Of a stretch of 46,608 nucleotides of DNA, positions 1-46,557 are shown in pieces. This DNA comes from a virus, in IMG/VR virus record IMGVR_UViG_3300027965_000072, positions 1-46,608 of that record; one strand, 5' to 3'. How positions within the stretch are numbered: the stretch's first letter is position 1; each line of letters begins with the position of its first letter. The notes below the pieces were generated by a model that was given only the letters and a program-made list of their open reading frames with translations, had not been told where the DNA came from and did no database searches. Both the position numbers and the translations under genes were made by a program.

Positions 1-75
1 GGATCTAATGACGATAGCAACACTCAGCGTCGAGTCGCGTCGATCACGTTCCTGCAGGAATAAGGATGGCTTTCA

Positions 76-125
76 ATGGAGGCGCGGGTCGGAATCGAAC
101 CGACGAATAAAGGTTTTGCAGACCT
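76..125. repeat. attL: attL core: 50-bp direct repeat of tRNA-Cys 3' end
   Basis: These 50 bases are identical to 46482..46531. Read on the minus strand they are the anticodon loop, T arm, acceptor 3' strand and CCA of tRNA-Cys, but the 5' half of the tRNA is missing here. A tRNA 3' end duplicated at both ends of an element, with an integrase next to one copy, is the usual mark of tyrosine-recombinase integration. The base pairs after the core (accgcg) also match the start of the tRNA acceptor strand, which may be chance. Confidence 0.93.
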
Positions 126-3909: not shown

Positions 3910-4052
3910 CGCTTCCTTCTCCTGCTTTCCTTTCCTCGCCTGGAACGCGGCGGAAACCCGGCCCGGCGGACTGGTGGGTTGGACACCGGCTCCGGCTCCC
4001 GCCGCGATCGAGGCGGCCTCGTCCTCCCCCGAGGCCAAGGCCACCCGCCCCG

Positions 4053-8527: not shown

Positions 8528-9079
8528 ATGATGAAAGCAACCCTCTTTTTCTGCTGCGTCTGCCTCACCTTGGCGGGCGCCCTGTTCGGCCAGGACGCCA
8601 CAACCGACGACCACCCCGAGCTCCGCGGGTGGTCCTCGGCGCGCTGGGGCATGAACCTCGCCGAGCTCCGCGCCGCATTCCCGGCCGCTCGCCCCATCGA
8701 TCCGCCGCAGCGTAACCTCGGCGCCCTCCAGCGCCTCCGCGCCGCCGGCGTCGCCTTCGGCCCCGTTCAGGCCACCGCCGCCTTCGAATTCGACCCCAAC
8801 GCGGACCGCCTCGTCGCCGTCACCCTCGACCCCGATCCCGCCATCTCCGCCACATCCGCCTTTTCGCAGCTCCGCGCCGCCCTGGTCGAAAAGTACGGCA
8901 CGCCGGCATCCGAAGGCACCGCCACGCACCGCACCGCCTCCGGCTCCGTGCTGCGCAACCGCGTCGTACAGTGGCGCATGAAACACACCACCGTCACTCT
9001 CACCTGGTACGGCGAAGGCGACCCGGTCGGCATGGTTGCCGCCCGCTACTCCGAACGCAAGAGCGACTCATCCCTTTAG
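8528..9079 (+). CDS. Secreted protein with Sec signal peptide
   Basis: 183 aa. Residues 1-21 (MMKATLFFCCVCLTLAGALF then GQ) form a signal peptide, so the mature protein is exported. The mature part begins with acidic residues and a WSSARWGMNLAELRAAFP segment of the WGM kind seen in periplasmic proteins. It ends with strand-rich sequence (TTVTLTWYGEGDPVGMVAAR). GAGGA lies 7 nt before the ATG. It sits in the immunity region on the plus strand, where genes expressed in the lysogen are usual, so it is probably a conversion gene. No family assigned. Confidence 0.75.
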   Translation: MMKATLFFCCVCLTLAGALFGQDATTDDHPELRGWSSARWGMNLAELRAAFPAARPIDPPQRNLGALQRLRAAGVAFGPVQATAAFEFDPNADRLVAVTLDPDPAISATSAFSQLRAALVEKYGTPASEGTATHRTASGSVLRNRVVQWRMKHTTVTLTWYGEGDPVGMVAARYSERKSDSSL

Positions 9080-9086
9080 ATTCCGA

Positions 9087-9117
9087 TTGACAATAGACTA
9101 TTGTCACGATACAATAG
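9087..9117 (+). promoter_or_regulatory. higBA promoter and operator
   Basis: TTGACA at 9087..9092, a 17-nt spacer and TACAAT at 9110..9115 make a near-consensus sigma-70 promoter. A perfect inverted repeat GACAATAG-A-CTATTGTC (9089..9105) covers the -35 box and spacer. A further half-site ACAATAG (9111..9117) overlaps the -10 box. HigA-type antitoxins bind such sites, so autorepression is likely. Transcription should start at about 9121-9123, which is the GTG of higB. Confidence 0.85.
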
Positions 9118-9121
9118 TCTC

Positions 9122-9397
9122 GTGATCGAAAGTTTCCGCAGCAAGGCGCTCGAACAGTTGTTCAACGGCAAGCCCAAGCTGGTGGAAGCGTCCCTGCGCC
9201 GCAAGGTCGAAAACATCCTGGTCGCCCTGGCCGCCGCCCCGGAGATCGCCGCCATGGATCTCCCCGGCTTCGATCTCCACCAGCTCCAGGGCGACCAGGC
9301 CGGAACGTGGGCCGTCAAGGTCAATAAGAATTGGCGCATCACTTTCCGCTTCGAAAACGGCAGCGCCCACGATGTCGATTTCGTGGACTACCATTAG
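9122..9397 (+). CDS. higB: HigB-family toxin (RelE-like mRNA interferase)
   Basis: 91 aa. HigB toxins cut mRNA on the ribosome. The sequence has the family layout: N-terminal [15 protein letters not shown], middle [20 protein letters not shown], then LPGFDLHQL and the C-terminal [17 protein letters not shown] ... DVDFVDYH, including the conserved W-I-F strand and final DYH. Start: GTG at 9122. Because the promoter predicts transcription to start at this codon, the mRNA would be leaderless. higA follows 8 nt downstream. The pair probably stabilises the prophage or defends against other phages. Confidence 0.92.
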
Positions 9398-9405
9398 GAG
9401 AAACC

Positions 9406-9690
9406 ATGCAGATGAAGAACCCGCCCCATCCCGGCCGCATCGTCAAAGACGAATGCCTCGCGCCGCTCGGCCTGACCGTCACCGCGGCCGCTCGTGTCCT
9501 CGGTGTCACCCGCCAGACTCTCAATAACCTGGTCAACGAAAAGGCCGGCATCTCTCCCGAAATGGCCGTGCGTCTCGCCAAAGCCTTCGGGAGCACCGCG
9601 GAGGCCTGGCTCCGCATGCAGGTAATCTACGACCTCGCCCACGTCCCCGAATCCGAAATCGCCGTCAAACGCTACAGAAAGGCGTCCTGA
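9406..9690 (+). CDS. higA: HigA-family antitoxin, Xre HTH
   Basis: 94 aa. The sequence [20 protein letters not shown], then [20 protein letters not shown] and the [20 protein letters not shown] segment are characteristic of HigA/VapI-type antitoxins: a five-helix Xre domain that binds the operator and neutralises HigB. TAGGAG lies 6 nt before the ATG. Its TGA sits in a 10-bp palindrome (TGAGCGCTCA, 9688..9697) that also holds the stop codon of the convergent beta-helix gene. Confidence 0.92.
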
Positions 9691-9694
9691 GCGC

Positions 9695-11935
9695 TCACCG
9701 CACCACACCGCCGGCCAGCCGCCCCGTCACCGTAGAGGTCCCCAAGCCCGTTGTAAACGATCCCGTCGCCTTGTAGCCACCAATCACAAACCGGTAGTAG
9801 TACGTGGTGTTCGGCGCCAGCCGCCGGTCGTGTCCGTTCTGGATCACCCCCGAGCCCACGATCAGCTTCCGGTGCGATCCCGTCACGATCGTCCCCGCCC
9901 GCTGGTCCGTATCGCTCAGCGGAAAGTAATCCGGCCGCACGTCATCCACCACCGTGTACGGCCCGGTCTCGTTCGGCAGGTTCGTGCTGGTCGTGACCTC
10001 GATATTCGCGGTCTGTCCCGAGAGCGGCGTGGGCACCGTGTAATCGAACGCGACATTCTCCCAGCCCGGCGTCACCGTGAAATCCGTAATCATCGGCAGC
10101 TGCGTCATGTCGACGCCGATGTCCTTCCCGTCCGTGCCCGCGTTGTGGTACGGAGAAGAAGCCGTCACCGCATAATTGCCCGCCGCGGCGCCCACGAAAG
10201 GATTGCTCCATGCCTGATAGAAGTTGCCCACGCAGGTACCGTGCCCGGTGCACGGCTCGTAAATCGACTGGCTGCGCCCGGGCACGGTGTTGTTCTCGAA
10301 CTCGCCGGTTTGCACCCGCAGACTCCACGCCCCGGTGTTGGCCCCCACGTAGTTCATGCCTTCCCCGTCGCAGTTTGCGCTCATGAATCCGTCCTGCAAC
10401 AGGTTGTTGGTGACGTTGAGGCCGTTATGCCAGGGTGGTCCCGAACACCCCGCGCCCGCCACGAACCACATCGCATAGTAAGTCCACTGCCCCAGGTAAT
10501 CCGTGTTGTGGTTGATCGTGTAGTTCGTCACCCCATTCGTCAGATAGATGCCGTACTGGTTGTATCCGCAGGGGGAGCCGCTGGTGGATGTGCTGGCGCA
10601 GAGAATGCGCGAGTCTTTCCAGCTCAGATTGTTCGAGAACGTATACCCGCTGGAGTTGCCGCCGCCCGGATATTCCGGCACCGCGTAACTGGTGGTGGAA
10701 TAGGCCAGCGTCGCATCCATGCCGCTCGCCCCGAAGAGGCGCGGCGTGTTCACCAGGAGATTGTTCTCGATGTCCACATTGTTGTTCAGCCACCCCGGCT
10801 CCTCGATCTCCACGATCTGGTTCGCCGTGTTGGTGAAGGTGCCATTCGTCGAGTAGGCCCGCGTCGTCGTCGCAGTGCTGGAGGAGGTCACCGTCGCAAT
10901 CGGAATCGCCTCCCACGCCGATCCGGTATTGATCGCGATGACTCGCCCCACCCACGCGGAAGTGAGCGCCCATGCGCCAGTAAAGCTGAGCTGGTTCCCG
11001 CCGCTGATGGTCACCGTCGCGCCGTTCGGAGCCGTGCTGCTCTGCATGATCGGGTTGAACCACAGACCATTCGTCTGATTGCCGCAGCCGTTGCCGCCAT
11101 TCTCGAACCAGTTCCACTTGATGGTCGCGCCGTTCATCTGCTTCAGTTCGAACGGATTCTTCAGGCACAGCGACCGCCCGATGTAATTCGGGCTGTTGCT
11201 GTACCACTTGTACGGCTTGTAGAAAATGTTGTGCTCGACCACCATGTTGGCGCTCGGCGGATCCACATAACCGAGATCCGCGCCGCCCACCAGCACGTTC
11301 TCGCTCGCGCCCACAATCCAGTTGTTTGTCAGCGTGATCGGCCCCGGGCCGCCCCAGGACGCGACACCCTGTCCGTCCTGCGCATCGTACGGCGTCTCCT
11401 CTACCCACGAATCCGCCATCGTGAACCCCTGCGTGTTCGCCACAATCGCGTGATGAACGTCCGTGTTAGTGAAATTGCCGTGGATGTACACCTGCTCCAG
11501 CGTGATCGCCCCAGGCAGGCTCGTGTCTGAACTGGCCGTCTCCGCCAGGCACACGAAGCATTCGATCGCCGTCGTTCCCGAATGCGTGATCTCCACGCCG
11601 CGGATCGTGACGCCCGAAACGTTCGGAGTCTGGGCCGGAATCACAATCCCCTGGTTGTTGGTCAGAACGATCTTCGGAAAGTAGGCCGAGTGCGATGGTG
11701 TAATCCGAATCCCCGCCGCCGGAAGCAGCGATTGGTTCCCCACGATCGTCACGTTGCTCTTGGTCAGGGTGTCGCCCGCCGTGTTGATCGTGCCCGAGAG
11801 CACCAGCGTGTCTCCGGCCTGCACCGCTGCAAACGCGGCCGTCAAGGACACATAGTCGCAACCCGAGGTGCACACCGTGTGCGTCGCCGCCTGCAGAGCG
11901 GCCGCCATTCCCAGCACCACTGCCAGTCTCTTCAT
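9695..11935 (-). CDS. Secreted right-handed parallel beta-helix protein
   Basis: 746 aa. A signal peptide (MKRLAVVLGMAAALQAATHT) is followed by a pectate-lyase-like solenoid: repeated turns with NNWIV, EHNIF, IENNLLVN, FSNNLSW and TINHNTDY patterns (about residues 60-560). The C-terminal 130 residues are a fibronectin-III-like domain with a TTYYYRFVIGG strand. Beta-helix proteins bind or cut polysaccharide; phage tail spikes share the fold, but spikes do not carry Sec signals. The ATG overlaps the LamG-like gene stop (ATGA), so it is the last of a coupled trio. A variant palindrome GCACAC-C-GTGTGC lies at 11871..11883 in the signal-peptide region. Likely secreted or surface-attached cargo. 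Confidence 0.85.
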   Translation of the reverse strand: MKRLAVVLGMAAALQAATHTVCTSGCDYVSLTAAFAAVQAGDTLVLSGTINTAGDTLTKSNVTIVGNQSLLPAAGIRITPSHSAYFPKIVLTNNQGIVIPAQTPNVSGVTIRGVEITHSGTTAIECFVCLAETASSDTSLPGAITLEQVYIHGNFTNTDVHHAIVANTQGFTMADSWVEETPYDAQDGQGVASWGGPGPITLTNNWIVGASENVLVGGADLGYVDPPSANMVVEHNIFYKPYKWYSNSPNYIGRSLCLKNPFELKQMNGATIKWNWFENGGNGCGNQTNGLWFNPIMQSSTAPNGATVTISGGNQLSFTGAWALTSAWVGRVIAINTGSAWEAIPIATVTSSSTATTTRAYSTNGTFTNTANQIVEIEEPGWLNNNVDIENNLLVNTPRLFGASGMDATLAYSTTSYAVPEYPGGGNSSGYTFSNNLSWKDSRILCASTSTSGSPCGYNQYGIYLTNGVTNYTINHNTDYLGQWTYYAMWFVAGAGCSGPPWHNGLNVTNNLLQDGFMSANCDGEGMNYVGANTGAWSLRVQTGEFENNTVPGRSQSIYEPCTGHGTCVGNFYQAWSNPFVGAAAGNYAVTASSPYHNAGTDGKDIGVDMTQLPMITDFTVTPGWENVAFDYTVPTPLSGQTANIEVTTSTNLPNETGPYTVVDDVRPDYFPLSDTDQRAGTIVTGSHRKLIVGSGVIQNGHDRRLAPNTTYYYRFVIGGYKATGSFTTGLGTSTVTGRLAGGVVR

Positions 11936-13077
11936 TGGATGATCAGCCCTCCGCCCGCAAAAGCCGCCCCGTTATCCGTGCCCACGGTGTAGAAAGTCGA
12001 CCCCGGCTTCTGGTTGTTGTAGCTCGCCGTGATCCAGGCCGTCGAGCGCACCACATTCGAGATCCGCGCCTCGTCGATCGTGCCCACCGTGTGCGTGCCA
12101 GAGGTAGAACCGCCGATAACGTTCGCGTACCCGCTGTATACCGCCGATGTGCCCGTATAGGTCGCTGCCTGCAGCCCGTTGATGTAGAGCGTTCCGGTCT
12201 GCCCCGAGCCGATTCCTGTGATCGTGTAGACCAGGTAATACCAGGTATTCAGCGATGGGTTGGCATAAGACATCGCCGCGCCCCAGGTCCCATCCCCGCT
12301 GTCCGCCACACCGGTGAAGTAAGGCGTCGAGCTGGCATAGCTGACTTCCAGGCCATACCCGTAAGTCTGAGCACCCTGCACCTTGCCGAAAATCGAGGAG
12401 TAAATCGTGCCGCTGAAAGCACTGAGATTCACCCACGCCGAAAAGGTCGCGGGCCCCGAGGTCGGCGGATCGGCCGCCAGCGCGATGTAGCTGTTCGCCG
12501 CCGCGAAGCTCTCACCGTATCCGACCAGCCCCGTCACTTGCGCCGGCTCATTGGTCGTGTTCGTGCTGTTGTTCCCGTTAGAGGTGCTGTCCTTGTAGTC
12601 GGCCGCCGCGCCCGTTCCCGCCTCCTTCAGGTGCCACACGCCCTTGTAGTTCGCATCCCACGTCCCCGCCACATTGCCCTGGAACGTCGTGACCGAGGCC
12701 TTCCCGTACCACAGGTAAATCACCGTGCCGTTGCTCAGCGATGGCACATTGATCCACACCACTGCCTGTCCGGTGGTCGCGCTGTAAAGCTCCCACTCGA
12801 ATGCCAGCACCGTGCTGCCCGCCGCATCCGAAGTGAAAATCACATCGCACGCCACAGTCATCGATCCCTGCGCGCAGGTATTCTGCACCATACCGCCATT
12901 TGCCGCCGTTTTCAGAAACGGGAACGTCCCCGAGACGAGCATCGGGAAATTCGTCTGTGTGCCCGGCACCTGGCCGCCGTTCACGCTAATCGTGCGGTAA
13001 TGGCTGTAGCCGTTCGCCCACGGCTGCGCCAGCGCGGCCGTCGACGCAAGCACCAGCGCCAGAAGGATGCGCCTCAT
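11932..13077 (-). CDS. Secreted DUF2341/LamG-like (concanavalin-type) protein
   Basis: 381 aa. Signal peptide at 1-20 ([20 protein letters not shown]). Residues about 20-115 match the DUF2341 type (YSHYRTISVNG ... AVVWINVPSL ... IYLWYG). Residues about 150-365 form a LamG-like jelly roll (KGVWHLKEAG, FSAWVNLSAF, TWYYLVYTIT, TGTLYINGLQ, IDEARISNVVRS). Both modules are typical of carbohydrate or surface binding. The ATG at 13077 overlaps the upstream TGA, and its own stop overlaps the beta-helix start, so the three cargo genes form one translational unit. No catalytic residues are visible, so binding or adhesion is more likely than hydrolysis. Confidence 0.85.
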   Translation of the reverse strand: MRRILLALVLASTAALAQPWANGYSHYRTISVNGGQVPGTQTNFPMLVSGTFPFLKTAANGGMVQNTCAQGSMTVACDVIFTSDAAGSTVLAFEWELYSATTGQAVVWINVPSLSNGTVIYLWYGKASVTTFQGNVAGTWDANYKGVWHLKEAGTGAAADYKDSTSNGNNSTNTTNEPAQVTGLVGYGESFAAANSYIALAADPPTSGPATFSAWVNLSAFSGTIYSSIFGKVQGAQTYGYGLEVSYASSTPYFTGVADSGDGTWGAAMSYANPSLNTWYYLVYTITGIGSGQTGTLYINGLQAATYTGTSAVYSGYANVIGGSTSGTHTVGTIDEARISNVVRSTAWITASYNNQKPGSTFYTVGTDNGAAFAGGGLIIQ

Positions 13078-15101
13078 TGGTCGCACTCCAGCACCAGCGT
13101 CGCCTGCGTTGCGCCGGAAGCCGCCGTCAGCTTGATGCCGACAATGTCATTCTGCGCCACCAGCGTTGTCCAGCCGGTGAGCGTCGTGGAGTGAATCGCC
13201 GTGCCGGTCGAGATCGCCGGCGCCGCCGAAGCCACGATGGAGTTAGCCGAGGTCGGAATCGCCGTGCCGGTCGCCACCTTCCACACATCGAAACTCGCGG
13301 TCCCGGTATCCACCGTGATGTTCCACGCCGAGAGCGTGCACGCGTACGGCACCGTCAGGTACTTCACCTGGCCGGCGGAGAGCGCCGTGCCGCCCCCGTC
13401 GAACGCCCAGCCGATCGCCCGCTTCGCCGGTGCGTACGAGGCGGTCGCCGCGTTGCCCGCATATGGCAGCAGATTCCCGCTCGTGTCGCGGATCTCGAAC
13501 GCCGCGGCCGTCGAATTGAAGAAGGCCACATTGACCGCGTTGTTCATCCATTGCCACCCCGTCACGCCATCGCCATTGCACAGATACACACGCCCCGAGT
13601 TCGTCCCGCCGCCCGTCACCACATACCAGAGCGGCGTCGTGCAGGTAGGCATCGCGGCGTACGTTCCGCTGGATTCCGGCGCAGCAGGCCCGGAAACCGC
13701 CAGCGGGCCCGTGCTCCCCGACTGGAACGACTTGCAGGTCAGATTCCCCGAGCCGTCATCCGTACACCCCGGCAGCGTTCCCGCGCCGACCACCTGCATC
13801 GAGGTGCCGTCATAGTCGAGCAGATAGAGCCCGCCCGCGGTCAGCATGCCATTGCCAAGCGCCACACCCGCCTGCGTCAGCACATTCTTGACGCCGAGCC
13901 CGTTCACATTGATCGTGGTCGCGCCGGTGTTCGTGTTCGCCACCTTCACCAGCAGCGGGCTCTGGCCATAAGCGGAATAAGCGGTCGCTGGCGCGCAGGT
14001 AATCGCGTTTGGCGTCGCCGAAGTGTCCGCGCAGTATACCGTGTTCGCCAGCGACGCCGGCGTCACCACCCCGGCCGGCCCCGTCGGACCGGTCGGACCG
14101 GTCGGACCGGTAGCTCCGATCTGCGACCACAGATTCCAGTTCGCCGGATTGAAGCTCGCCCCGCTCGTAAACGAGGTGCTCGCCTCATAGGTCTGCCCGC
14201 CATACGTCACCACATCGTACGGATTGTAGGCCGTCGCCGTCTGCCACGCCCCGCGGAAAGTGAATCCCTGCCCCTGCGGTCCGGTCGGACCGGTCGGCCC
14301 CACCGCCCCGGTCGGCCCGGTCAGCCCTTGCGGTCCCGTAGGCCCCGTAGCCCCCACCGGCCCCACCAGGCCAGCGATCGACAGGTTCCAGTCCGCGTGC
14401 GTCCCCGATCCGCCGATCCCGCCGCACACGCCCGCCGCGGCCGCCGTCGCAGTAAACGTCAGCGATCCCGTGCCGCTGTTGTAGGCCGTGATCGGCCCCG
14501 TCATGTAGGCCCCCGGCGTCCCGCTGGACGCCAACTGCAGGCATGCCCCCACCGTATAGGCCAGCCCCGGCTGAGTCGTGAGGCTCACGGTGCCAGCTCC
14601 GATCGCCAGCGCCGTCGCGCTCGTCGCCGCGTATCCCGAGGGATACGCCGCCACCCAGTCCCCCGCCGCCGCGCTCCACACCCACAACTGCCCGTCCGCC
14701 AGCCCAGCCCCGTTGATCCGGTGCACGCTCACCACCCCCGCTGGCCCGGCCGAATCCCACAACTGCGGAATCGTCAGCGTCGCGGCCGTCGCCGGCACCA
14801 CCCACCGCTCCTCGCCCATCGGCAGGAGCTGCCCCGCCGCGTTCAGCATCCGGTACTGCGCGCGATAGGTGCAGCCGAAGCAGCCGGCCAGGCTGAAATC
14901 CACCACGCCCCCCGCGCCCACCGTCACCGTCCGGTTGCTCGGCGAAAGCGTCGGGCTCCCCACCGGCCCCGACACCACGATCTGGCTCCCCGCCGGCCAC
15001 GCCGTCTGCCCGTCGTTGAGCAGCAGCGTCCAGTGCACATGCGTCTGCGCCGCCGCCAGGCCGCACCAGGCCACCGCCAGAATTGCGAATTTCCCCCTCA
15101 C
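13074..15101 (-). CDS. Secreted collagen-like protein
   Basis: 675 aa from GTG at 15101 (AAGGAG 6 nt upstream). Signal peptide [19 protein letters not shown]. The N-terminal 240 residues are strand-rich. Two Gly-X-Y runs follow, a long one ([20 protein letters not shown] and onwards, about residues 250-285) and a shorter one ([16 protein letters not shown]), separated by a carbohydrate-binding-like [20 protein letters not shown] segment. The C-terminus (about 300 residues) looks like a trimeric fibre head. Collagen-like repeats are common in phage fibres, but a Sec signal and a position after the endolysin argue for an exported product. A perfect palindromic site (15120..15131) lies just upstream of the Shine-Dalgarno. 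Confidence 0.82.
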
Positions 15102-15119
15102 GCCCGCTCCTTTTCCCTC

Positions 15120-15131
15120 GCACACGTGTGC
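15120..15131. promoter_or_regulatory. Dispersed palindrome, site 3 (GCACACGTGTGC)
   Basis: Perfect copy, extended to a 16-bp palindrome TCGCACACGTGTGCGA (15118..15133). It lies in the 34-bp gap between the endolysin stop and the start of the secreted cargo operon, so it is well placed to control the cargo genes. Confidence 0.75.
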
Positions 15132-15135
15132 GAGC

Positions 15136-15489
15136 CTACGCCCCGATCGCCAGCACGTCCCGCAACGGCGTGTCCGCCGCCACCTGCCCGCCGAACCCCT
15201 CGAGCACGAACCGCAGATACCCCGCCGTGTCGTTCTCCTCCGGCGGTGCCCACTGCGCGATCGCCTCCCCGAGCGTCAGTCCCCGGTCCGCATACAGCCG
15301 GAGCTGCCGCTCGAGGTCCGCCCACCCGTCCGCGTCCGAATCGATCGCCCCGATATCGTCCGGCCCGATCCCCGCGTGCGACGCGTGCGGGGAGTGCCGC
15401 AGATCCCCCGGATTGTGCCGCCGCGCCGGCAGCGTCCCCGCGCGAAAGAACCCCTCCTCCGTCGCGATCAGTTGCGCCAGGCGCGTCAC
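15136..15489 (-). CDS. Endolysin (lysozyme/transglycosylase-like muramidase)
   Basis: 117 aa. The sequence LAQLIATEEGFFRAGTLPAR, then RHNPGDLR, then DGWADLERQLRLYADRGLTL and IAQWAPPEEN...YLRFVLEGFG is the layout of small phage muramidases with a lysozyme-like fold. The Glu in ATEEGF is the likely catalytic residue, and the Trp-Ala-Pro segment closes the fold. It would cut peptidoglycan at lysis. It starts by ATGA overlap with the holin-like gene, the usual holin-endolysin order. Confidence 0.85.
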   Translation of the reverse strand: MTRLAQLIATEEGFFRAGTLPARRHNPGDLRHSPHASHAGIGPDDIGAIDSDADGWADLERQLRLYADRGLTLGEAIAQWAPPEENDTAGYLRFVLEGFGGQVAADTPLRDVLAIGA

Positions 15490-15641
15490 TGGTTATGGTC
15501 CTTCGCCGCGACCAGCCCCGAGGCCGCAAAGACCGCCGCTGTCGCCTGGATCTTCGCGCTCAGATCCTTCGGCGCCCAGATCGGCGCGATCGCCGCCGCG
15601 AGCGTCAGCACGCCCGCCACCGTCGTCCGCCAGTTCTTCAC
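15486..15641 (-). CDS. Holin-like small membrane protein
   Basis: 51 aa from GTG at 15641, which overlaps the upstream TGA. The sequence KNWRTTVAGVLTLAAAIAPI, then a short polar loop (WAPKDLSAKI) and QATAAVFAASGLVAAKDHNQ fits a well-known type of small phage membrane protein with two short helices and a GLVAAKDHN end. It is usually called a holin because it sits next to the endolysin, as here. It would permeabilise the inner membrane so that the endolysin reaches the wall. Confidence 0.8.
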   Translation of the reverse strand: MKNWRTTVAGVLTLAAAIAPIWAPKDLSAKIQATAAVFAASGLVAAKDHNQ

Positions 15642-16257: not shown

Positions 16258-16833
16258 TCAGAACGTCTTGCGGATGTCGAGCAGGTACGACGGCTTCACC
16301 GCGTTCGCGCCCGCCGGCGCCGCCGGAGCCGCCACGTAATCCGCGTGAAACACGATCGGCAGATGAAACTTCTTTTTGCTGGCCAGGTAGCCCAAGTCGA
16401 ACCCCACCGCCGCCCCGCCCCCGAACGTCGCCGTAGTCACCGTCCCCGACCCCGAGGCTGCCTGCACCACCCCGAGATGCCCATCCCCGATAAATTCGAA
16501 ATACCCGCTGTGCACCAGGTGGTATTCGAACCGCTCCGAGAGCAGCGCATACCCCGGCGTCGGATTGCTGGCCCCGATCCCCGTCGTGATCGTCGTCACC
16601 AGGAACGCATTGGAGCACGTCCCCGTCTTGACCCCGAACCCCGTGCTCAGCGACGGCAGCTTCGCGAACTGGTCGTATCCGATCGCCGTCGACCCGAAAT
16701 ACGAATACGGCGTGTTCGGTGCCCCCGCCGGACACTCGGCCGCGGCCGGAGCCGCCGGCGTCGTGTTGATGGCCTGCCCGCACGCGCACACCGCGAGCAC
16801 GGACGCAAGAGTGATTACAAGCATCGCCTTCAT
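16258..16833 (-). CDS. Exported protein, possible outer-membrane beta-barrel
   Basis: 191 aa. Signal peptide at about 1-21 (MKAMLVITLASVLAVCACGQ). The mature protein is rich in Gly and aromatic residues with alternating strands (ALLSERFEYHLVHSGYFEFI, GGGAAVGFDLGYLASKKKFH). It ends in SYLLDIRKTF with a terminal Phe, the usual BAM-recognition signature of outer-membrane barrels. About 160 residues would suit an 8-strand barrel. It lies in the late operon between fibre genes and lysis genes. Likely roles are receptor masking in the lysogen or a lysis-related outer-membrane function; both are inference. Confidence 0.65.
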   Translation of the reverse strand: MKAMLVITLASVLAVCACGQAINTTPAAPAAAECPAGAPNTPYSYFGSTAIGYDQFAKLPSLSTGFGVKTGTCSNAFLVTTITTGIGASNPTPGYALLSERFEYHLVHSGYFEFIGDGHLGVVQAASGSGTVTTATFGGGAAVGFDLGYLASKKKFHLPIVFHADYVAAPAAPAGANAVKPSYLLDIRKTF

Positions 16834-17640: not shown

Positions 17641-20097
17641 TTAGACGTACCCGTTGTAAATTCCGTAAGTCAACTGAAGCCGCTTCTGCCCAACGTTCGA
17701 CCCGTTGACCACAAGATTGCAGTAATTTCCGGTGTCCGCGTCCTGAATGCCGATGTCGATCACCCCGGAAACCCCGCTGTACCCGCCGACAGTGAGGGAG
17801 GAGCACGTCACGCTGTAGCTTGGGCAATACACCCCCGCGCCCGTGAACTGGCCGGATGAGTTGATCGCCGTGGTGCCGTTGATGACAAGGTAATTGAAAT
17901 AGGCAGGGTACGACGGGCTATAGACCCCATAGCCGGAGTACGAACTGCTGGCGTAAAAGGCGCCCTGGAACGTAGATGCAGAGAGAGTGCCTGAGATCGA
18001 TAGGCCGCCGGCTCCAATAGACAGGCCATAGCAGTACGTTGTGCCGCCGCCGAAATATGCCGCATAGGATGGGCAGTAAACGCCGTATCCGCTGTAGGCA
18101 CCGAAAACGTTCAGGCCGTATCCGGCGTTCAGCAAGCCCGACGAGGTGACGACCATCGCTCCGTTCAGTTGGAGGTAGTTGCTGAGAACGTTCAGACCCG
18201 ATCCGCCCGCCGACAGTTGAATATTGTTTGTATTGATGGTGACGCCATTCGTTCCGTCACTGAGCTGCATCCGGTTCGGAAAGACCGTTGCCGAATACCC
18301 GGAATAGCTGCATGTCAGGCCGGCAAAAGACGTAGAGGTAGTAGAGGTTATCTGCAGGCCGTTCGACGTGGAACTAGCGAAGATCGTCGACGAGCTCGTG
18401 TAAACCGTAATCCCCGTCCCCGACCCCGCCAGCGCGCTCCCGCACTCGATACTCCCCGCCAGATGGGCATTCCCCGACGTATCGAGCCAGATTTTCGGGT
18501 TCGTCGGATCAGTGCCCCCGATCCATACGTTCTGAAACCACGCGCCATAGTACGTCGTGCCGCCGATCGCCTTGCTGCCAAACCAGCCGATCACACTGCC
18601 GCCGTTGACAATCTGCTGCACCGTCTGCGCGGCTCCGGCTCCCGTATTGATCGGCCCCGTCACGCCCGACCACGGCACACTGCTAGCGCTCCCGGCCGTT
18701 CCAGCGCTCGAAGCATAGCCCGCTGTGGTGGCGTTGGTAGCGTTGGTCGCATTGGTCGCGTTGGTAGCGTTCGTGGCATTAGTCGCATTGGTGGCGTTCG
18801 TCGCGTTCGCCACCGCTCCAGAAACCTGCGATCCCTGGACTTGGGCATTCGCCGGGTTAAGCTCCAAGTCGAAGTAAGCCGCCCCGCCAGGCCATGCGTC
18901 TTGAACAGTCTCCGTGCCGCCGGTCCCGCCATCCTGTCTGGTGGCTACACCCATCGTAAACCGGTACACGACGTCTCGCGTGCTCGGCACCGGCCAGCCG
19001 CCCACCACCGCCTGAACCTGCCCCGCCGCGATCGTCGATACCAGCGACATAAACGACGCGTGGTCCTGCACGTTGTACCCGTTGCCGTTCGGCCCGGCCC
19101 AATCCCCCAGCGCCAGCGACGTCGCCTGCGGCCCCTCCGCCGTGAACGTCGAAGGCGTCCCCGGTGTCGCGTAATAACCCGTCTGCACGTACAGCCGCGC
19201 ATAGAAAAACTTCGGGTCGCTCAGCGGCAGCGTGAAGGTGATCGTCGTGTTCCAGAGGTTCGCGCCGCCAGGCCCCGCGTAGTAGTTAATCGCCGGCGTC
19301 CCGCTCACCGACGCCACGTTGTTCGCGAACACGCCCGGAGGGCTCACGCTAACCGTGCAGGACTGTACCCCGGCTGCGGTGGTAATATCCGTCGCCGAAT
19401 CCACCGTCCCCGGAGCCACATACACCGTCACGGTTTCAGCCGCCGCGGTCGGCGGATAGATCGTCGTTGCCCCACCCTTCTTACCGAGGTAAATTGTGGT
19501 AGGGCCGCTCAGCACAAACCAGCCGTGCCACAGCCTGCCATACTGCGGGCTATTGGTCGCAATGGTGATCGGAATGGGGTACGCCGGCGCCGACACCGCC
19601 ACCGCCACCACCGCGTGCAGATCCCCACTGGTGCCCTGCCAGCGGTCCGTGGTATCGTCCGTCGCCGTTGGCGCATTCACCTCGTAGGCGGGAAGCGACA
19701 ATCCGCTAATGATGTACGGGCTCGGCGTCGGAGCTCCCGCAGTGTTGACGGATACGAACTCCGCCGCGAGCCCGGATGCTCCAGCAAACCCCGGCGGAAG
19801 AACCTCGGTCGGAACAACGCGCCCGTACGCTACCGAGGTACCGGCGCTTGCGGCCAATAACGCCTTGTCGAGAGTAAACGCCAGCAGGGCTTTCCCCGTG
19901 CCGGATGCGGCATTCAACAGGTACACGTCTACATGGTCCAGCGTACCTAGGGCCGACGGCACATTGACCGACCCGGATAACGCCGCCATTACCGCGTTCC
20001 CCACCATTTGCAGCACGATCGTGCACGTCGCCGTCACGTTCGGCGCCGCCGCCGGCGGCGTGTACCCCGGAGCCGATTTGAGAATCCACTCGCCCAT
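17641..20097 (-). CDS. Tail fibre protein with NAT repeats
   Basis: 818 aa. The N-terminal 370 residues are strand-rich and probably attach to the tail. A run of nine Asn-Ala-Thr triplets (about residues 431-457) makes a fibre shaft of the kind seen in lambda-like side fibres. The C-terminal 340 residues carry strands of the type KIWLDTSGNAHLAG (a common shaft-to-head element) and degenerate repeats with YSGYGVYCPSYAAYF and YSGYGVYSPSYPAYF. It would bind the host receptor. It has no Sec signal, in contrast to the collagen-like protein downstream. The Tyr-Ser-Gly-rich repeats are unusual. Confidence 0.85.
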   Translation of the reverse strand: MGEWILKSAPGYTPPAAAPNVTATCTIVLQMVGNAVMAALSGSVNVPSALGTLDHVDVYLLNAASGTGKALLAFTLDKALLAASAGTSVAYGRVVPTEVLPPGFAGASGLAAEFVSVNTAGAPTPSPYIISGLSLPAYEVNAPTATDDTTDRWQGTSGDLHAVVAVAVSAPAYPIPITIATNSPQYGRLWHGWFVLSGPTTIYLGKKGGATTIYPPTAAAETVTVYVAPGTVDSATDITTAAGVQSCTVSVSPPGVFANNVASVSGTPAINYYAGPGGANLWNTTITFTLPLSDPKFFYARLYVQTGYYATPGTPSTFTAEGPQATSLALGDWAGPNGNGYNVQDHASFMSLVSTIAAGQVQAVVGGWPVPSTRDVVYRFTMGVATRQDGGTGGTETVQDAWPGGAAYFDLELNPANAQVQGSQVSGAVANATNATNATNATNATNATNATNATNATTAGYASSAGTAGSASSVPWSGVTGPINTGAGAAQTVQQIVNGGSVIGWFGSKAIGGTTYYGAWFQNVWIGGTDPTNPKIWLDTSGNAHLAGSIECGSALAGSGTGITVYTSSSTIFASSTSNGLQITSTTSTSFAGLTCSYSGYSATVFPNRMQLSDGTNGVTINTNNIQLSAGGSGLNVLSNYLQLNGAMVVTSSGLLNAGYGLNVFGAYSGYGVYCPSYAAYFGGGTTYCYGLSIGAGGLSISGTLSASTFQGAFYASSSYSGYGVYSPSYPAYFNYLVINGTTAINSSGQFTGAGVYCPSYSVTCSSLTVGGYSGVSGVIDIGIQDADTGNYCNLVVNGSNVGQKRLQLTYGIYNGYV
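18727..18807 (-). repeat. Nine 9-bp units encoding Asn-Ala-Thr
   Basis: Nine codon triplets AAY-GCN-ACN in tandem. Third positions vary between units, so the protein repeat is kept while the DNA has diverged, which argues for selection on the shaft. Confidence 0.9.
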
Positions 20098-20100
20098 GCG

Positions 20101-23100
20101 CTATAGCCCCTCGATCACCACGCACGCCGCCGCGCCGCCGGCCCCCGGCGTAATCTGGTAGTCCGCCGTCGAACCGTTCAGGCTATCCCCCGTGTTCTCG
20201 CGCAGCCACACCGAATGCGTGCTCCCCGCGGCCAGGTTGAACGTCAGATCCTTGCCGCTCATCCCGCTCTCCGCCGGCAGCAGCAGGTACACGTCCTGCG
20301 TCGTCGCCACGATGTTGTACACCGCGGCCTCCGCCGGCAGCACAAACGGGCTCCCCGTCGTGCCCGCCCCCGCCAGCGCCGGCGAGCTCGTCCCGTTGGT
20401 GATCGCATACGAGATATCGGCCCCGGCTTGCAGCAGCAGCCCCTGCGTCGAGTTCCCCGTCAGGCACACGTAATGGACCGGCGAATCCCCCCAGCCGTTC
20501 GTCACGCTGCCGCCCACGCTCACCAGCTTCGTTCCCGGCAGCGGTTGCAGCAGCGACCAGTCCGCGAACGCCGCCGAATTCACGAAGCTCAGCGGAAATG
20601 CGCACGTCTGCACCGTCTGCTCGACCGCCCAGCAGCTCGCCCCGTTCGCCGCGGCCGCCGCCGTGCTCCCGAGCTGCCCGCGCGCAATCGGCACCACGCC
20701 GCTGCTCGGCGCGCCCGTTGCCTGCACGATCTCCGCCCCGATCTGCAAATAGTCGCCCGAAGCCACATGCGAGGCGTCCGTCAGCGTGACAGTCGCATCG
20801 CTCGCGCCCAGCGCCGCCGCCAGCGTAGTCAGCGGACTATTTGGCAGCACGTAATAGAAAGTCCACGTCCCCGCAGTGATCGAATAAGCATTCGTCAGGT
20901 CCGAGAACGCCAGCCCCGTCACTTCGGCAGAGCTCCCGTCCCCGCCAGCCTCCACCGCGAACGTCGGCGGCACGGTCGGACCCACCCCCACCTTCGGCGC
21001 CGATCCATACTGAGGGTCCTGCGCATTCCCGTGCGAATCCAGATACCACGAATCCTCGTGATGGTGCCCCGCCAGCGTGATCGTCTGCCAGTTCTTCGCC
21101 GGCTTGATCTCCGTGAGCCGGATCTGCTGATCCGTCATCCCGTACTTCGTGCTATTCACCGTCACGATCTGCCCGATGCGCAGCTTGCACCCGCGGAAGC
21201 TCGTCTCCCACTCCCAGAAGTCCGTCCCGCGCGTATCGCCTTCCGGATTCCCCCGGTGGATCTTGTTCAGCCCCAGCCGCGCGCACCGCAGCGCATGGTT
21301 GTAGCTCGCGATCCCCTCCGGCTGCACCTGCAAGCCGCCCTGCACCGTGCGCCCCACCCGCGCCACATCGTCCGAATCCACCAGGCTGAACGTCGAAATC
21401 GCGTAATCCTGCACCGGGTCCTGGAATCCGAAGGTGATCCGGTTCGGCATCTGCGCCACCGGCATCGGCCGCCGCTTCAGGTTCCAGCTATTCGTCTCGT
21501 CGAACCGGTACGCCGTGTACCCGTTCGCGGCCGTCCCGTCCCGCAGCGTGCTCGCGATCGCCGTGCTGTAGTTGCTCCCATCCACCGCTGCCGGCTGCTG
21601 CTCCGCCAGCGGGCCCTCGATCCGGAACCCGATCGTCCCGTCCTGCTCCTGCGTCAGCATCCCGCCCACCGACTGCCGCAGCCCCCGCATGATGTCCGCC
21701 GCGCTCCGCCGCTGCCGCAGCGCGACGGAATTCGAAAACCGCGGCTGCGTATAGTTGTTCCCCGAGCCGTCCTGCGTCGTAATCAGCGCGTTGCAGATCG
21801 CGTCCGAGTCGCTGAAGGTAGTGCCGTTCAGATCGCCCGGCTGCACCCCGCACCAGCTCAGCAGCTCCTGCGCCAGGCCCGGCGCGGGGCCGCCCCCCGA
21901 TTGCGTGACCTGGTTGTAGTACATCGTGCCGCCGCTGCCGCTGCCCGCCGGCGCAAAACTCCCCTGGAGCGTCGCATGATCGTATGGCGGAGGGTCGAGA
22001 AACCGCATGATCCACGAACCGTCCGCGTAATGGAACCCGGCGCCCGTGATCGTCACCGCCGCACCATCGTAAGGGTCCGTGGTCAGGGTCAGCGCGCGCG
22101 CAAAGTGAATCACGATGGGCCCCGGATTCCCGCTCGATCCCGCGTTCGCCGACACAATCGCGATCGAACTCGGCGTCACCAGCGTTCCGCCCACCGACTT
22201 CTGAGCCAGCACCTGAATCGTCGGCACCGTCTCCGGAGACACCACCGATTTCGGCACGCGCCACTCGATCACCGTCAGGTTGCCGTAAGGATCGCCCAGC
22301 CCGTTGTACCCGGCGTCCGGGTTCGGCGTGCCGTCACGCTGCCCATTGTTCGTGTAGGCCCAGTAGTAATCCGTGCCGCCGGCCGTGTTCTGCGTGCACT
22401 CCACCCCGTTCACGATCACCCGCTGCACCGCCACCTCGCCGAACCCGATCGCAGCCTCGCCGCGCGTGTAGTTCCCGTCCCCCATCTGGTTCAGCACCGC
22501 CACGGACATCCAGGCCATGCCGCCCAGCCACAGCGGCCAGTACTCGTTGTACTTGGCCGAGGTGTCCGCGTTGGTCCAGGAAACCTCGTTCCCGCTCACG
22601 TACTCCACGCCCGTGTCCGTCGTTTTCGGCACGAACGTCACGTTCCCGCGCCGGCGCGGCTGCGTGCAGGTCTGCGTGGTGTAGTTGCAGGGCGGCGCCG
22701 TCGTCAGGTCCCGCGTCTCCCCGCACAGCCAGTACGGCGAATCCTGGTAGGACGTCGCCGCCGCGGCCGCCGCCCGCTGCGCCACCGTCGTCGGATTCAC
22801 CCACGGGCACGTCACCTGGATCGGCACCGTCGGCAGCAGGTAATTCGCCAGGTTCAGCTTGGATTGCGCCGCCACCGTCAGATACTGCTCGTCGCTCGCC
22901 GGCTCGTCGCACACCCCCACGAACGGCACGAACTGATCCGTCGAATACGTCCCCGCCGAGAGATCCATCAGCGCAAACCGCAGCGTAAGTGCCGCGCCCT
23001 TGAAGCCGTGCCCCCGCTCGTACGCCGTGAAGGCAGCCGCGTCCGGGTCCGCCAGCTTCAGCGTCACCGAGGGCACCCGGTCGATCCCCTGCTGGCTCAG

Positions 23101-23280
23101 CACCTGCAACTGGTCCACCTGCTGGTCGTCGATCCGCGCCTCGTAGGTGTGCCCGTTGAACGTCGCCGGCACCGACGCCACATACCACGCCGTGCCATCC
23201 GGAAACGCGAAGTCGCAGAACACCACCGGCCGCGGCGCCGCCGCCTCTTCCTTGCCCGTGTTGATCGTGTAGCCGCCCAT
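20101..23280 (-). CDS. Tail-tip/baseplate hub protein (gpJ-like central tail protein)
   Basis: 1059 aa. Size, place after the minor tail proteins and directly before the fibre, and a multi-domain strand-rich sequence fit the central tail-tip hub that attaches fibres and contacts the cell. Segments in order: an N-terminal hub-like domain (residues about 10-140, VFCDFAFPDGTAWYVASVPA ... FVPFVGVCDEPA), a Cys-containing insertion (CPW, CGE, CNYTTQTC, about 165-210), a middle domain with DIMRGLRQSVGGMLTQEQDG (about 535), and a C-terminal part with carbohydrate-binding-like strands. I chose the ATG at 23280; a GTG inside the palindrome at 23301 is also in frame. The family assignment is by layout more than by motif. 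Confidence 0.75.
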   Translation of the reverse strand: MGGYTINTGKEEAAAPRPVVFCDFAFPDGTAWYVASVPATFNGHTYEARIDDQQVDQLQVLSQQGIDRVPSVTLKLADPDAAAFTAYERGHGFKGAALTLRFALMDLSAGTYSTDQFVPFVGVCDEPASDEQYLTVAAQSKLNLANYLLPTVPIQVTCPWVNPTTVAQRAAAAAATSYQDSPYWLCGETRDLTTAPPCNYTTQTCTQPRRRGNVTFVPKTTDTGVEYVSGNEVSWTNADTSAKYNEYWPLWLGGMAWMSVAVLNQMGDGNYTRGEAAIGFGEVAVQRVIVNGVECTQNTAGGTDYYWAYTNNGQRDGTPNPDAGYNGLGDPYGNLTVIEWRVPKSVVSPETVPTIQVLAQKSVGGTLVTPSSIAIVSANAGSSGNPGPIVIHFARALTLTTDPYDGAAVTITGAGFHYADGSWIMRFLDPPPYDHATLQGSFAPAGSGSGGTMYYNQVTQSGGGPAPGLAQELLSWCGVQPGDLNGTTFSDSDAICNALITTQDGSGNNYTQPRFSNSVALRQRRSAADIMRGLRQSVGGMLTQEQDGTIGFRIEGPLAEQQPAAVDGSNYSTAIASTLRDGTAANGYTAYRFDETNSWNLKRRPMPVAQMPNRITFGFQDPVQDYAISTFSLVDSDDVARVGRTVQGGLQVQPEGIASYNHALRCARLGLNKIHRGNPEGDTRGTDFWEWETSFRGCKLRIGQIVTVNSTKYGMTDQQIRLTEIKPAKNWQTITLAGHHHEDSWYLDSHGNAQDPQYGSAPKVGVGPTVPPTFAVEAGGDGSSAEVTGLAFSDLTNAYSITAGTWTFYYVLPNSPLTTLAAALGASDATVTLTDASHVASGDYLQIGAEIVQATGAPSSGVVPIARGQLGSTAAAAANGASCWAVEQTVQTCAFPLSFVNSAAFADWSLLQPLPGTKLVSVGGSVTNGWGDSPVHYVCLTGNSTQGLLLQAGADISYAITNGTSSPALAGAGTTGSPFVLPAEAAVYNIVATTQDVYLLLPAESGMSGKDLTFNLAAGSTHSVWLRENTGDSLNGSTADYQITPGAGGAAACVVIEGL

Positions 23281-23297
23281 CGCATGCGAAGCGGCGC

Positions 23298-23309
23298 GCA
23301 CACGTGTGC
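23298..23309. promoter_or_regulatory. Dispersed palindrome, site 4 (GCACACGTGTGC)
   Basis: Perfect copy in the 48-bp gap between the gene ending at 23329 and the start of the hub gene. Confidence 0.75.
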
Positions 23310-23328
23310 ACGCCGCCGAATCCCCCGA

Positions 23329-23616
23329 TTACTCCGCCGGCGTAAAATCCAGATAATAGGTCGAGCCGACGCGGAACTCATCTTTCAGCGCCGCATTGCT
23401 CAACAGGAACGTCATGCTCCCGCTCGGCGTCGCCTCGGCGAAGCTCCGGTTCTCCGCCGACAGCCCGTTGTCATAGACGGCCGTCATGGTGATCTCCCGC
23501 ATCGGCACATCGGTTTCCTGGCCGCCCTGGTAGCACTTGGACACATGCGGTCCATTCGCCCCCTGATAGCCCATCTCGGCCACCTTCGTCACTGTAAACT
23601 TTGCTCGTACGTTCAT
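23329..23616 (-). CDS. Small tail-module protein
   Basis: 95 aa, not recognised. The ATG at 23616 has AAGGAG 10 nt upstream. The sequence is strand-rich (VRAKFTVTKVAEMGY, REITMTAVYD, TFLLSNAALKDEFRVGSTYY). It is placed between a DUF2460-like protein and the hub, where siphophages keep small tail-tip or hub-cap proteins. A structural role is inferred from position only. Confidence 0.65.
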   Translation of the reverse strand: MNVRAKFTVTKVAEMGYQGANGPHVSKCYQGGQETDVPMREITMTAVYDNGLSAENRSFAEATPSGSMTFLLSNAALKDEFRVGSTYYLDFTPAE

Positions 23617-23630
23617 TGCGTTTTGGCTCC

Positions 23631-24356
23631 TTAGCTCACCAGTTGCTGCACTTCCAGCCGCAGATCGTTCTCGTTCGGCCCCAGCACCCGCCACTGCGCC
23701 CGGTCCGACGCAAACCGGCTCGAGTACACCGTCCCGCTGTCCGGGTCCCGGAAGAGGAAACTGCGCCACCGCCCCGCGTTCAGCCGGTAGTAATCCCACA
23801 GCGCCTGCGCCTCCGTGTCCGTCAGCGCCGCACCGCCCACCGCCCATCGCCGCAGCGCGTTCAGCCGCCGCGCATAGGCGTACCGGCCGCCCTCCGTCCG
23901 CACCGAGGCCGTATCGAAGTTCTCCGCATGCGTGAACGGCAACTGGACCACCGCCCCGCTCAACAGCACCGGAAACGACGAGGCCAGCGCGCCCGTGTCC
24001 ACCGCCCGCGCCGCCGTCGTCAGCTTCACCGACCCGCTCCAAAGCGTCGGCCGCCCCGCCTGCTCCGTGAACACCAGCTCGTCCGCATCGAAGGACAGCC
24101 CGGTGTAATTCGTCGTGCCGCACATCAGGCTCACCGTCTGGTCGTATGCGCCCTTGCAGGCCTCGAACACCGCCAGAATCGCGTCCCGGTCCGCCAGCGC
24201 CAGATAGGTATACGGCAGCGTCCACGACTCCACCCCCGGCGACAGCATCCACCGCTGCTCCGTGCCGTCGATCCCCGTCGCAATCCCCGTCGTGAAGGAC
24301 AGCTCGTGCACCACCGGCGTCCCCCACGCCGGCGTGGTCGGATACACCTGCGCCAC
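23631..24356 (-). CDS. DUF2460-like distal tail protein
   Basis: 241 aa from a GTG. The C-terminal section (GGAALTDTEAQALWDYYRLN, GRWRSFLFRDPDS, SDRAQWRVLGPNENDLRLEV) resembles the DUF2460/gene-transfer-agent tail family, with the FRDPD-type loop. The N-terminal half (VVHELSFTTGIATGIDGTEQ, SWTLPYTYLAL) is strand-rich and fits a distal-tail ring. It probably joins the tail tube to the hub. Confidence 0.7.
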   Translation of the reverse strand: MAQVYPTTPAWGTPVVHELSFTTGIATGIDGTEQRWMLSPGVESWTLPYTYLALADRDAILAVFEACKGAYDQTVSLMCGTTNYTGLSFDADELVFTEQAGRPTLWSGSVKLTTAARAVDTGALASSFPVLLSGAVVQLPFTHAENFDTASVRTEGGRYAYARRLNALRRWAVGGAALTDTEAQALWDYYRLNAGRWRSFLFRDPDSGTVYSSRFASDRAQWRVLGPNENDLRLEVQQLVS

Positions 24357-46368: not shown

Positions 46369-46481
46369 GATTCCGCTCTTCGCCGAGCCTTCGCCGTTTC
46401 CGGCCGCATAATCGCCCGGTTTGGCGCTCCGAATCAGGCTGCCGGAATTGCTGTAAGTTGTTGGATTTTTAGCTGCTTTTG

Positions 46482-46531
46482 ATGGAGGCGCGGGTCGGAA
46501 TCGAACCGACGAATAAAGGTTTTGCAGACCT
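46482..46531. repeat. attR: attR core: 50-bp direct repeat of tRNA-Cys 3' end
   Basis: Identical to 76..125. It forms the 3' part of the intact tRNA-Cys, so the phage supplied the 3' end that keeps the tRNA functional. Confidence 0.93.
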
Positions 46532-46557
46532 TGGCCTTACCACTTGGCTACCGCGCC
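46483..46557 (-). tRNA. tRNA-Cys (GCA), intact, with encoded CCA
   Basis: Minus strand. The acceptor GGCGCGG pairs with CCGCGCC, the anticodon GCA sits in CTGCAAA, the T arm is GTCGGTTCGAATCCGAC, and the discriminator T is followed by an encoded CCA at the 3' end. About 75 nt. The 3' 49 bases belong to the att core, so the tRNA 3' end is phage-derived. Confidence 0.95.

What the first reader, a model, noticed from the sequence alone, without database searches (positions are those of the whole stretch)
9695..13077. LamG-like and beta-helix proteins form one coupled secreted cassette with the collagen-like gene
The three genes overlap by ATGA and each has its own signal peptide. Together they resemble a surface carbohydrate-binding or -modifying set (DUF2341/LamG, pectate-lyase-like solenoid, FN3-like end). 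A palindromic site stands at the start of the operon. This looks like a lysogenic-conversion module that could change host surface, biofilm or superinfection behaviour. I do not know it as a described system.
Basis: partly seen in the sequence, partly recalled or inferred. Interest (0 to 1): 0.82.

Follow-up and report, generated by a model that had tools for sequence, protein, structure and literature searches.

The report
Exported fibre-lectin cassette in soil prophage
A virus integrated in a soil bacterium carries three linked genes for fibre-like and sugar-binding proteins that bear export signals, which ordinary virus tail fibres do not have, and similar pairs occur in other viruses of these bacteria and in the bacteria's own slime-making gene clusters.

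Summary
The trio is real: collagen-like fibre (15101-13074, GTG), DUF2341-LamG lectin (13077-11932) and a solenoid-like protein (11935-9695), minus strand, ATGA overlaps, each with a Sec-type signal peptide by a home-made scan. It closes the late strand of a complete prophage in a tRNA-Cys gene; the host is probably Bryobacterales (Acidobacteriota). The palindrome upstream is one of eight dispersed copies, so it does not mark this operon. Relatives extend the finding. The fibre's C1q/TNF-like knob recurs in phage and chromosomal proteins: 12 of 13 with a complete start pass the scan. In five loci the fibre 3' end overlaps the next gene in the same register, although that gene is LamG in three and a beta-helix in two. 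One LamG pair lies in a chromosomal exopolysaccharide cluster. Isolated Tunturiibacter phages Tunturi 1, 2 and 4 carry analogous signal-peptide fibre/spike genes; Tunturi 1-2 have no annotated integrase. Best reading: a late-expressed, Sec-exported, modular fibre plus carbohydrate-module cassette acting on host exopolysaccharide; whether virions pick it up is open. Lysogenic conversion is possible but unsupported. I found no description in print in my searches. Export, virion association and function are untested.

The parts
13074..15101 (-). Gene 1: signal peptide (about residues 1-18), beta-type N-terminal region, collagen-like GPT/GPV repeats (DNA 14057-14361), CBM5/12-like stretch, C1q/TNF-like trimerising knob at the C-terminus; 675 aa from GTG 15101
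13074..13421 (-). C-terminal knob domain (ends ..ECDQ) shared with phage fibres and with secreted host proteins
11932..13077 (-). Gene 2: signal peptide + DUF2341 + LamG (concanavalin A-like lectin), 381 aa, start codon overlaps gene 1 stop (ATGA)
9695..11935 (-). Gene 3: signal peptide + Cys-rich solenoid-like body (beta-helix by eye only) + weak FN3-like end, 746 aa, ATGA overlap with gene 2
15117..15134 (.). Perfect 18-bp palindrome between endolysin-like gene and gene 1; one of eight dispersed GCACACGTGTGC-type sites
15136..15489 (-). Endolysin-like gene (phrog_873 E 1.1e-9; also matches a late part of the tape-measure profile phrog_2276), directly upstream of the trio
16258..16833 (-). 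Another signal-peptide gene of the late strand (191 aa, no family); possible accessory
17641..24356 (-). Tail genes upstream: 818-aa fibre-like protein, 1066-aa tail protein (phrog_1101), 241-aa gene; none called with a signal peptide
69..125 (.). Left copy of the 57-bp att-type repeat (96% identical to 46475-46531)
46475..46557 (-). Right att-type repeat (46475-46531) overlapping tRNA-Cys (46483-46557)

Best explanation
The trio is a modular cassette of Sec-exported proteins made with the lysis and tail genes when the prophage is induced. Gene 1 makes a trimeric collagen-stalked fibre with a C1q/TNF-like knob; gene 2 a DUF2341-LamG lectin; gene 3 a solenoid-like, Cys-rich protein. After export the proteins fold outside the cytoplasm (probably with disulphides) and bind or process the host's exopolysaccharide coat, helping progeny leave or re-enter slime-coated cells. 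Coupling by overlapping start/stop codons keeps the fibre and its carbohydrate module in step, and the partner behind the fibre is exchangeable. SHOWN: gene order, overlaps, signal-peptide-like N-termini, domains, recurrence in other phages, the shared pair in a host exopolysaccharide cluster. INFERRED: actual export, late expression, disulphides, sugar target, benefit. OPEN: whether the exported proteins are also taken up by virions.
For: Signal peptides: trio all called. Knob family: of 14 ORFs examined, 13 have a complete 5' end and 12 of these pass a scan that tries several start codons with no score threshold (L063 weak; L069 fails for lack of K/R; L014 is cut at its start). Same fibre-partner junction register in 5 loci with unrelated partners: LamG in window, L014, L062; beta-helix in L002, L012. 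The signal peptide is an add-on: SP-less homologues begin where the mature forms would, LamG in L005 and beta-helix in L010. It is attached in different contexts: the mature start of Tunturi_4 gp114 matches residue 486 onward of Tunturi_2 gp17, 49% over 685 columns, both with SP. Exopolysaccharide link: L062 carries SP-fibre + SP-DUF2341-LamG + SP-protein beside asparagine synthase, GT1, heparinase II/III and GT2 genes; knob proteins of L064, L068, L069 and the best hit of gene 3 (L071) lie among polysaccharide genes too. Late position. Cysteine: in Tunturi_2, 85 Cys in 4112 residues of 5 SP proteins against 26 in 6026 of 18 others, of 23 late genes taken.
Against: No SignalP-class predictor was available; the scan also of 50 early genes of Tunturi_2 (3 of 23 + 2 of 27; several look like lipoproteins) and a probable holin in the window (6 of 28 window genes called). 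The cysteine contrast is weak in the window itself (LamG has 2; tail proteins at 17641 and 20101 have 9 and 15), and the SP-less beta-helix of L010 also has 8. No expression, secretion or binding data. No catalytic family was found for the window's proteins. PHROGs calls gene 1 tail-fibre-like and one relative, L087, is a tailspike by profile, which would fit virion parts as well.
Confidence: 0.5

Rival explanations
1. Virion spikes routed through Sec: the proteins are the receptor-binding fibres/spikes of the virion, exported and folded in the periplasm, and joined to particles during or after lysis.
For: Relatives sit inside head/tail modules: L002/L003/L012 near major head protein and head-closure genes, L009 before the portal gene, L014 before a structural gene. 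L087 gene 14469-16346 has a signal peptide yet matches tail spike, tail fibre and pre-neck appendage PHROGs and Pect-lyase_RHGA_epim. Tunturi_1 gp14 is annotated tail spike, Tunturi_2 gp13 tail fiber. In-vitro addition of spikes to particles is known for P22 (recalled).
Against: The window has other fibre-like genes without a signal peptide (17641-20097, 20101-23301). No virion data; I know of no tailed phage that builds spikes this way (recalled). Homologues in exopolysaccharide clusters have no virion to join.
Confidence: 0.22
2. Lysogenic conversion: the trio is expressed from the prophage and changes the lysogen's surface, biofilm or superinfection.
For: Prophage state, exported carbohydrate-type proteins, homologues in host exopolysaccharide clusters, end-of-operon position.
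Against: No minus-strand promoter-like site from 15136 to 9695 and continuous late strand (consensus scan only, Acidobacteriota promoters may differ). Analogous cassettes in Tunturi 1/2, lytic isolates with no annotated integrase.
Confidence: 0.15
3. Ordinary cytoplasmic tail fibres whose signal-peptide-like starts are remnants of genes captured from host secreted proteins.
For: PHROG tail-fibre matches; host homologues with signal peptides; SP-less homologues in other phages.
Against: Signal peptides persist across divergent phages and are attached at different domain borders.
Confidence: 0.1
4. Chromosomal insertion unrelated to the phage (transferred host exopolysaccharide genes).
For: L062 pair in a chromosomal exopolysaccharide cluster with the same overlap.
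Against: The same pair lies amid phage structural genes in L014 and the fibre family in L002, L012, L004, L063, L066; the trio lies inside the att repeats.
Confidence: 0.03

Closest known systems
Collagen-stalked tail fibres with C1q/TNF-like or other knobs (PHROG 5073, 819, 10972; BFVD collagen/C1q hits)
   Same: Stalk-knob architecture and late/tail location
   Different: Signal peptides; coupled exported lectin and solenoid genes; homologues in host exopolysaccharide clusters
Tailspike depolymerases with pectate-lyase-like folds (P22/K1-type spikes, recalled)
   Same: Solenoid and lectin modules aimed at surface polysaccharide; L087 matches tail spike PHROGs
   Different: Known spikes are made in the cytoplasm without signal peptide (recalled)
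Sec-exported phage endolysins (Lys44 of phage fOg44; SAR endolysins)
   Same: Phage late protein with a Sec signal (review PMC6116005, passages seen)
   Different: Those are lysis enzymes; these are fibre/lectin/solenoid proteins
Secreted fibre + DUF2341-LamG pair in an Acidobacteriota exopolysaccharide cluster (L062; knob proteins of L064, L068, L069)
   Same: Same order, same overlap register, signal peptides, same knob
   Different: Chromosomal; no phage genes noticed in the 20-kb stretch L062
Bacillus exosporium collagen/C1q-type proteins (BclA recalled; BxpB/ExsFA structures)
   Same: Surface protein with a C1q/TNF-like head; weak fold similarity (best E 5.9e-3, none <= 0.001)
   Different: No sequence relation tested; other biology

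Membership tests
Virion tail fibre / tailspike | Encoded in the late/tail module | tested here: met
   Minus-strand run after tail and endolysin-like genes
Virion tail fibre / tailspike | Fibre architecture (stalk plus trimeric knob) | tested here: met
   Collagen stretches and PHROG tail fibre matches; knob model pLDDT 65, BFVD best E 2e-7 to a phage protein, several hits to collagen/tail fibre proteins; trimer itself not modelled
Virion tail fibre / tailspike | Made in the cytoplasm, no export signal | tested here: not met
   Signal peptide called in all three
Virion tail fibre / tailspike | Present in virions | not testable with these tools
   No proteomics; the main text of PMC11924767 has no hit for mass spectrometry, SDS-PAGE or signal peptide (term counts)
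Lysogenic-conversion module | Own promoter / transcription apart from the late operon | tested here: not met
   (consensus scan only)
Lysogenic-conversion module | Expressed in the lysogen | not testable with these tools
   No transcript data
Lysogenic-conversion module | Confined to temperate phages | tested here: inconclusive
   Tunturi 1/2 cassettes are analogous, not homologous by BLASTP to the window's proteins
Sec-exported proteins | n-region K/R, hydrophobic core, A-X-A-type cleavage site | tested here: met
   home-made scan; SignalP not available
Sec-exported proteins | Observed cleavage/export | not testable with these tools
   Experiment needed
Host exopolysaccharide-cluster fibre-LamG pair | Knob fibre followed by overlapping SP-DUF2341-LamG | tested here: met
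   Window, L014, L062
Host exopolysaccharide-cluster fibre-LamG pair | Lies among polysaccharide genes | tested here: not met
   Window trio is in a prophage
Pectate-lyase-like beta-helix (gene 3) | Profile match to a beta-helix family | tested here: not met

The most novel reading that the evidence does not exclude
Tailed phages of Acidobacteriota build carbohydrate-binding spikes through the host Sec pathway: fibres, lectins and beta-helix spikes are exported, disulphide-folded outside the cytoplasm and fitted to virions during or after lysis. The module pool is shared with the hosts' own exopolysaccharide gene clusters, so phage and host draw on one set of slime-binding fibres.
Probability: 0.2. 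Interest if true: 0.9.

Novelty: new variant of a known kind. Interest (0 to 1): 0.6.

Why it matters
Tail fibres and spikes are taken to be cytoplasmic products built straight onto the virion. A recurrent family of fibre/spike-like genes with export signals in phages of one abundant soil phylum, shared with the hosts' slime gene clusters, would mean either a new assembly route or a new class of released anti-slime proteins. Because Tunturi 1, 2 and 4 and their hosts are isolated, the question can be tested directly.

Tried and rejected
Close-relative scans of IMG/VR with single proteins gave little: 3 loci for the fibre, 1 for LamG, 0 for gene 3, 0 for the 1066-aa tail protein. GenBank phages gave 1 short match for the fibre and none for LamG or gene 3, and none for the N-terminal domain of the L063 fibre or for the L002 beta-helix. 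PDB sequence searches: no match. The AlphaFold model of LamG was useless (pLDDT 39.8) and was not searched. In one search the L014 LamG was translated in a wrong frame, so its cysteine count there is void; the frame was corrected for the alignment. In one search the automatic gene choice hid the signal-peptide fibre and beta-helix genes of L012 and counted other frames or long forms as 'no SP', so the pooled counts there (161/8051 against 233/24067) are rough. The idea that the palindrome is an operon-specific operator was dropped. Of nine regions asked for around related integrases seven were delivered and two did not exist; five (L084-L088) were read: L084 and L087 show SP lectin/spike genes, L085 shows one 204-aa SP gene between its tape-measure and J-like genes, L086 looked chromosomal by eye and L088 showed no fibre cassette. 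Tunturi_3 (25 genes of the first 50 kb) and the fibre region of Tunturi_5 (6 genes) show no such cassette; the rest of these two genomes was not examined. Of 14 regions fetched, L067 (same contig as L014) and L073-L075 were not tabulated.
Full report
WHAT THE WINDOW IS. The window is a 46,608-base IMG/VR virus record. A 57-bp repeat at 69-125 and 46475-46531 (96% identical) frames nearly all of it; the right copy overlaps a tRNA-Cys gene and an integrase lies just inside the left copy. It therefore reads as a complete integrated prophage. Host: tRNA-Cys plus right flank (134 bases) was matched in 228 of 257 genomes of one order, as expected for a tRNA; the best match extends through the flank (G412, 87% over query 5-134). 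Integrase relatives at E <= 1e-40 are in 19 of 257 of these genomes (best 61% identity), many next to the tRNA-Cys match. The genome that defines this order, G001, is the one in which L014, titled Bryobacterales, lies. A Bryobacterales host (Acidobacteriota) is likely but inferred.

THE TRIO. On the minus strand, after terminase, portal, head, tape-measure and tail genes and an endolysin-like gene, come the collagen-like fibre, the DUF2341-LamG protein and the third protein, joined by ATGA overlaps. All three pass a home-made signal-peptide scan; so do 16258-16833, 8528-9079 and the probable holin 15486-15641, 6 of 28 genes tested. DUF2341 and LamG are above Pfam cut-offs; the third protein has no profile match and its solenoid nature is by eye. 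No promoter-like site lies on the minus strand between 15136 and 9695.

THE KNOB FAMILY. The last 140 residues of the fibre hold a domain found in four IMG/VR contigs besides the window, two of which carry the same sequence, in 2 contigs of the genome collection and in 10 of 399 genomes of the class. A model of it (pLDDT 65) resembles C1q/TNF-like heads and phage fibres: PDB best E 5.9e-3, none at or below 0.001; BFVD 30 hits at or below 0.001, among them collagen and tail-fibre proteins. Of 14 ORFs with the domain, 13 have a complete start and 12 of these give a signal-peptide call; the scan tried several start codons and used no threshold, so this is generous.

ONE JUNCTION, SEVERAL PARTNERS. 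In window, L014, L062, L002 and L012 the fibre's last codons contain the start of the next gene in the same register: a 4-nt overlap (ATGA or GTGA) in the first three, a 13-nt overlap in L002 and L012. The next gene is SP-DUF2341-LamG in window, L014 and L062 and an SP-beta-helix-type protein in L002 and L012 (beta-helix by eye and by mutual homology; no Pfam match for L002). In L065 the partner is another SP protein, in L004 the SP beta-helix follows after a 288-nt gap, and in L064 an SP gene overlaps further; in L015, L063, L066, L068, L069 and L070 no such overlapping partner was found by that script. The partner thus looks exchangeable.

PHAGE CONTEXT. L002/L003/L012: late regions with a major head protein (phrog_283) and a head-closure gene (phrog_578). 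L009: SP beta-helix just before the portal gene (phrog_156), after a gene that looks like a terminase by eye, and another SP gene after the major head protein. L014: LamG followed by a structural gene (phrog_399). L063: knob fibre in a 6.69-Mb contig near a J-like tail protein. L066: knob and collagen fibre near tail-type genes. L087: in a genome of the same order, an SP gene that matches tail spike, tail fibre and pre-neck appendage PHROGs and Pect-lyase_RHGA_epim, a few genes after a major-head-protein gene. L084, whose integrase is the closest to the window's (61%), carries an 869-aa SP-LamG protein with 24 Cys that overlaps an M23 peptidase gene.

ISOLATED PHAGES. Tunturi_2 has SP calls in gp12, gp13 (tail fiber), gp14 (pectin lyase; tail spike in Tunturi_1), gp16 and gp17 (virion structural protein): 5 of 28 late genes, all within gp12-gp17. 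Tunturi_1 matches these five at 97-100% protein identity, with only 3 residue changes in the first 25 positions, all in gp17. Tunturi_4, another lineage, has the pair gp113-gp114 with signal peptides; gp114 matches an inner part of Tunturi_2 gp17. No case was seen in the parts of Tunturi_3 and Tunturi_5 examined. [quoted passage not shown]

SP-LESS COUNTERPARTS. L005, a 49% GC phage contig, has a collagen-like protein followed by DUF2341-LamG that can start at MAYSNGYTY, just where the window's mature protein would begin (a TTG start 17 codons upstream is also open). L010, with the beta-helix family downstream of a 1799-aa tape-measure-like gene (by eye), starts MALSSASVWEVRP, again at the mature position. 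Their hosts are unknown.

HOST COUNTERPARTS. L062 (G140) holds the SP-fibre, the overlapping SP-DUF2341-LamG and a third SP protein next to asparagine synthase, glycosyltransferase, heparinase and GT2 genes. Knob proteins of L064, L068 and L069 and the best hit of gene 3 (L071; 12 of 250 genomes matched at E <= 1e-15) are also among polysaccharide genes: deacetylase, epimerase, DegT, UDP-glucose dehydrogenase, flippase, DUF3485, asparagine synthase. LamG relatives at E <= 1e-20 occur in 10 of 299 genomes of the class, many as parts of longer frames.

READING. A cassette that keeps signal peptides across unrelated phages, exchanges its carbohydrate module at a fixed junction and has twins in exopolysaccharide clusters most likely works outside the cell on exopolysaccharide. 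Late position speaks for action at the end of the lytic cycle. Whether virions carry the proteins is undecided; L087 and the Tunturi annotations make it a serious rival. Cysteine content fits export in Tunturi_2 (85/4112 against 26/6026) but is not decisive in the window.

LITERATURE. Ten searches of the open PMC library (listings seen) and passages of PMC11924767, PMC6116005 and PMC12923769 gave no description of signal-peptide fibre cassettes; subscription papers are not held.

Noticed in passing
window 3878, 7227, 15120, 23298, 28326, 32650, 38134, 46303: Eight dispersed palindromic sites GCACACGTGTGC (<=1 mismatch; 0.2 expected); the exact site occurs at one place in each of 2 of 5 related host genomes (about 34 Mb). 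Could be parS-like for the ParB-like protein 1879-4044 or stoperator-like; the copy 15 bp before the fibre start codon might silence it in lysogeny.
   Followed up: partly
window 69-125 and 46475-46531: att-type 57-bp repeat and tRNA-Cys: complete integrated prophage.
   Followed up: yes
window 9101-9690 +: HigB/HigA-like toxin-antitoxin pair (phrog_3066, phrog_1381) converging with the trio.
   Followed up: no
window 8528-9079 +: Small signal-peptide gene; L084:4474-4995 looks alike by eye at a corresponding place of the prophage with the closest integrase.
   Followed up: partly
L003:3774-4802, L012:3923-4699, L009:8142-8990: Signal-peptide genes directly after the major head protein, no PHROG match for the two tested.
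   Followed up: partly
L076:4010-5209 (Tunturi_2 gp79): 'Tail protein' with a lipoprotein-type signal MNTKILLLSLLLTGC on the early strand.
   Followed up: no
L002:1500-2012 and L009:1435-1899: Small signal-peptide proteins just before the fibre or beta-helix gene, 45% identical between two phages.
   Followed up: no
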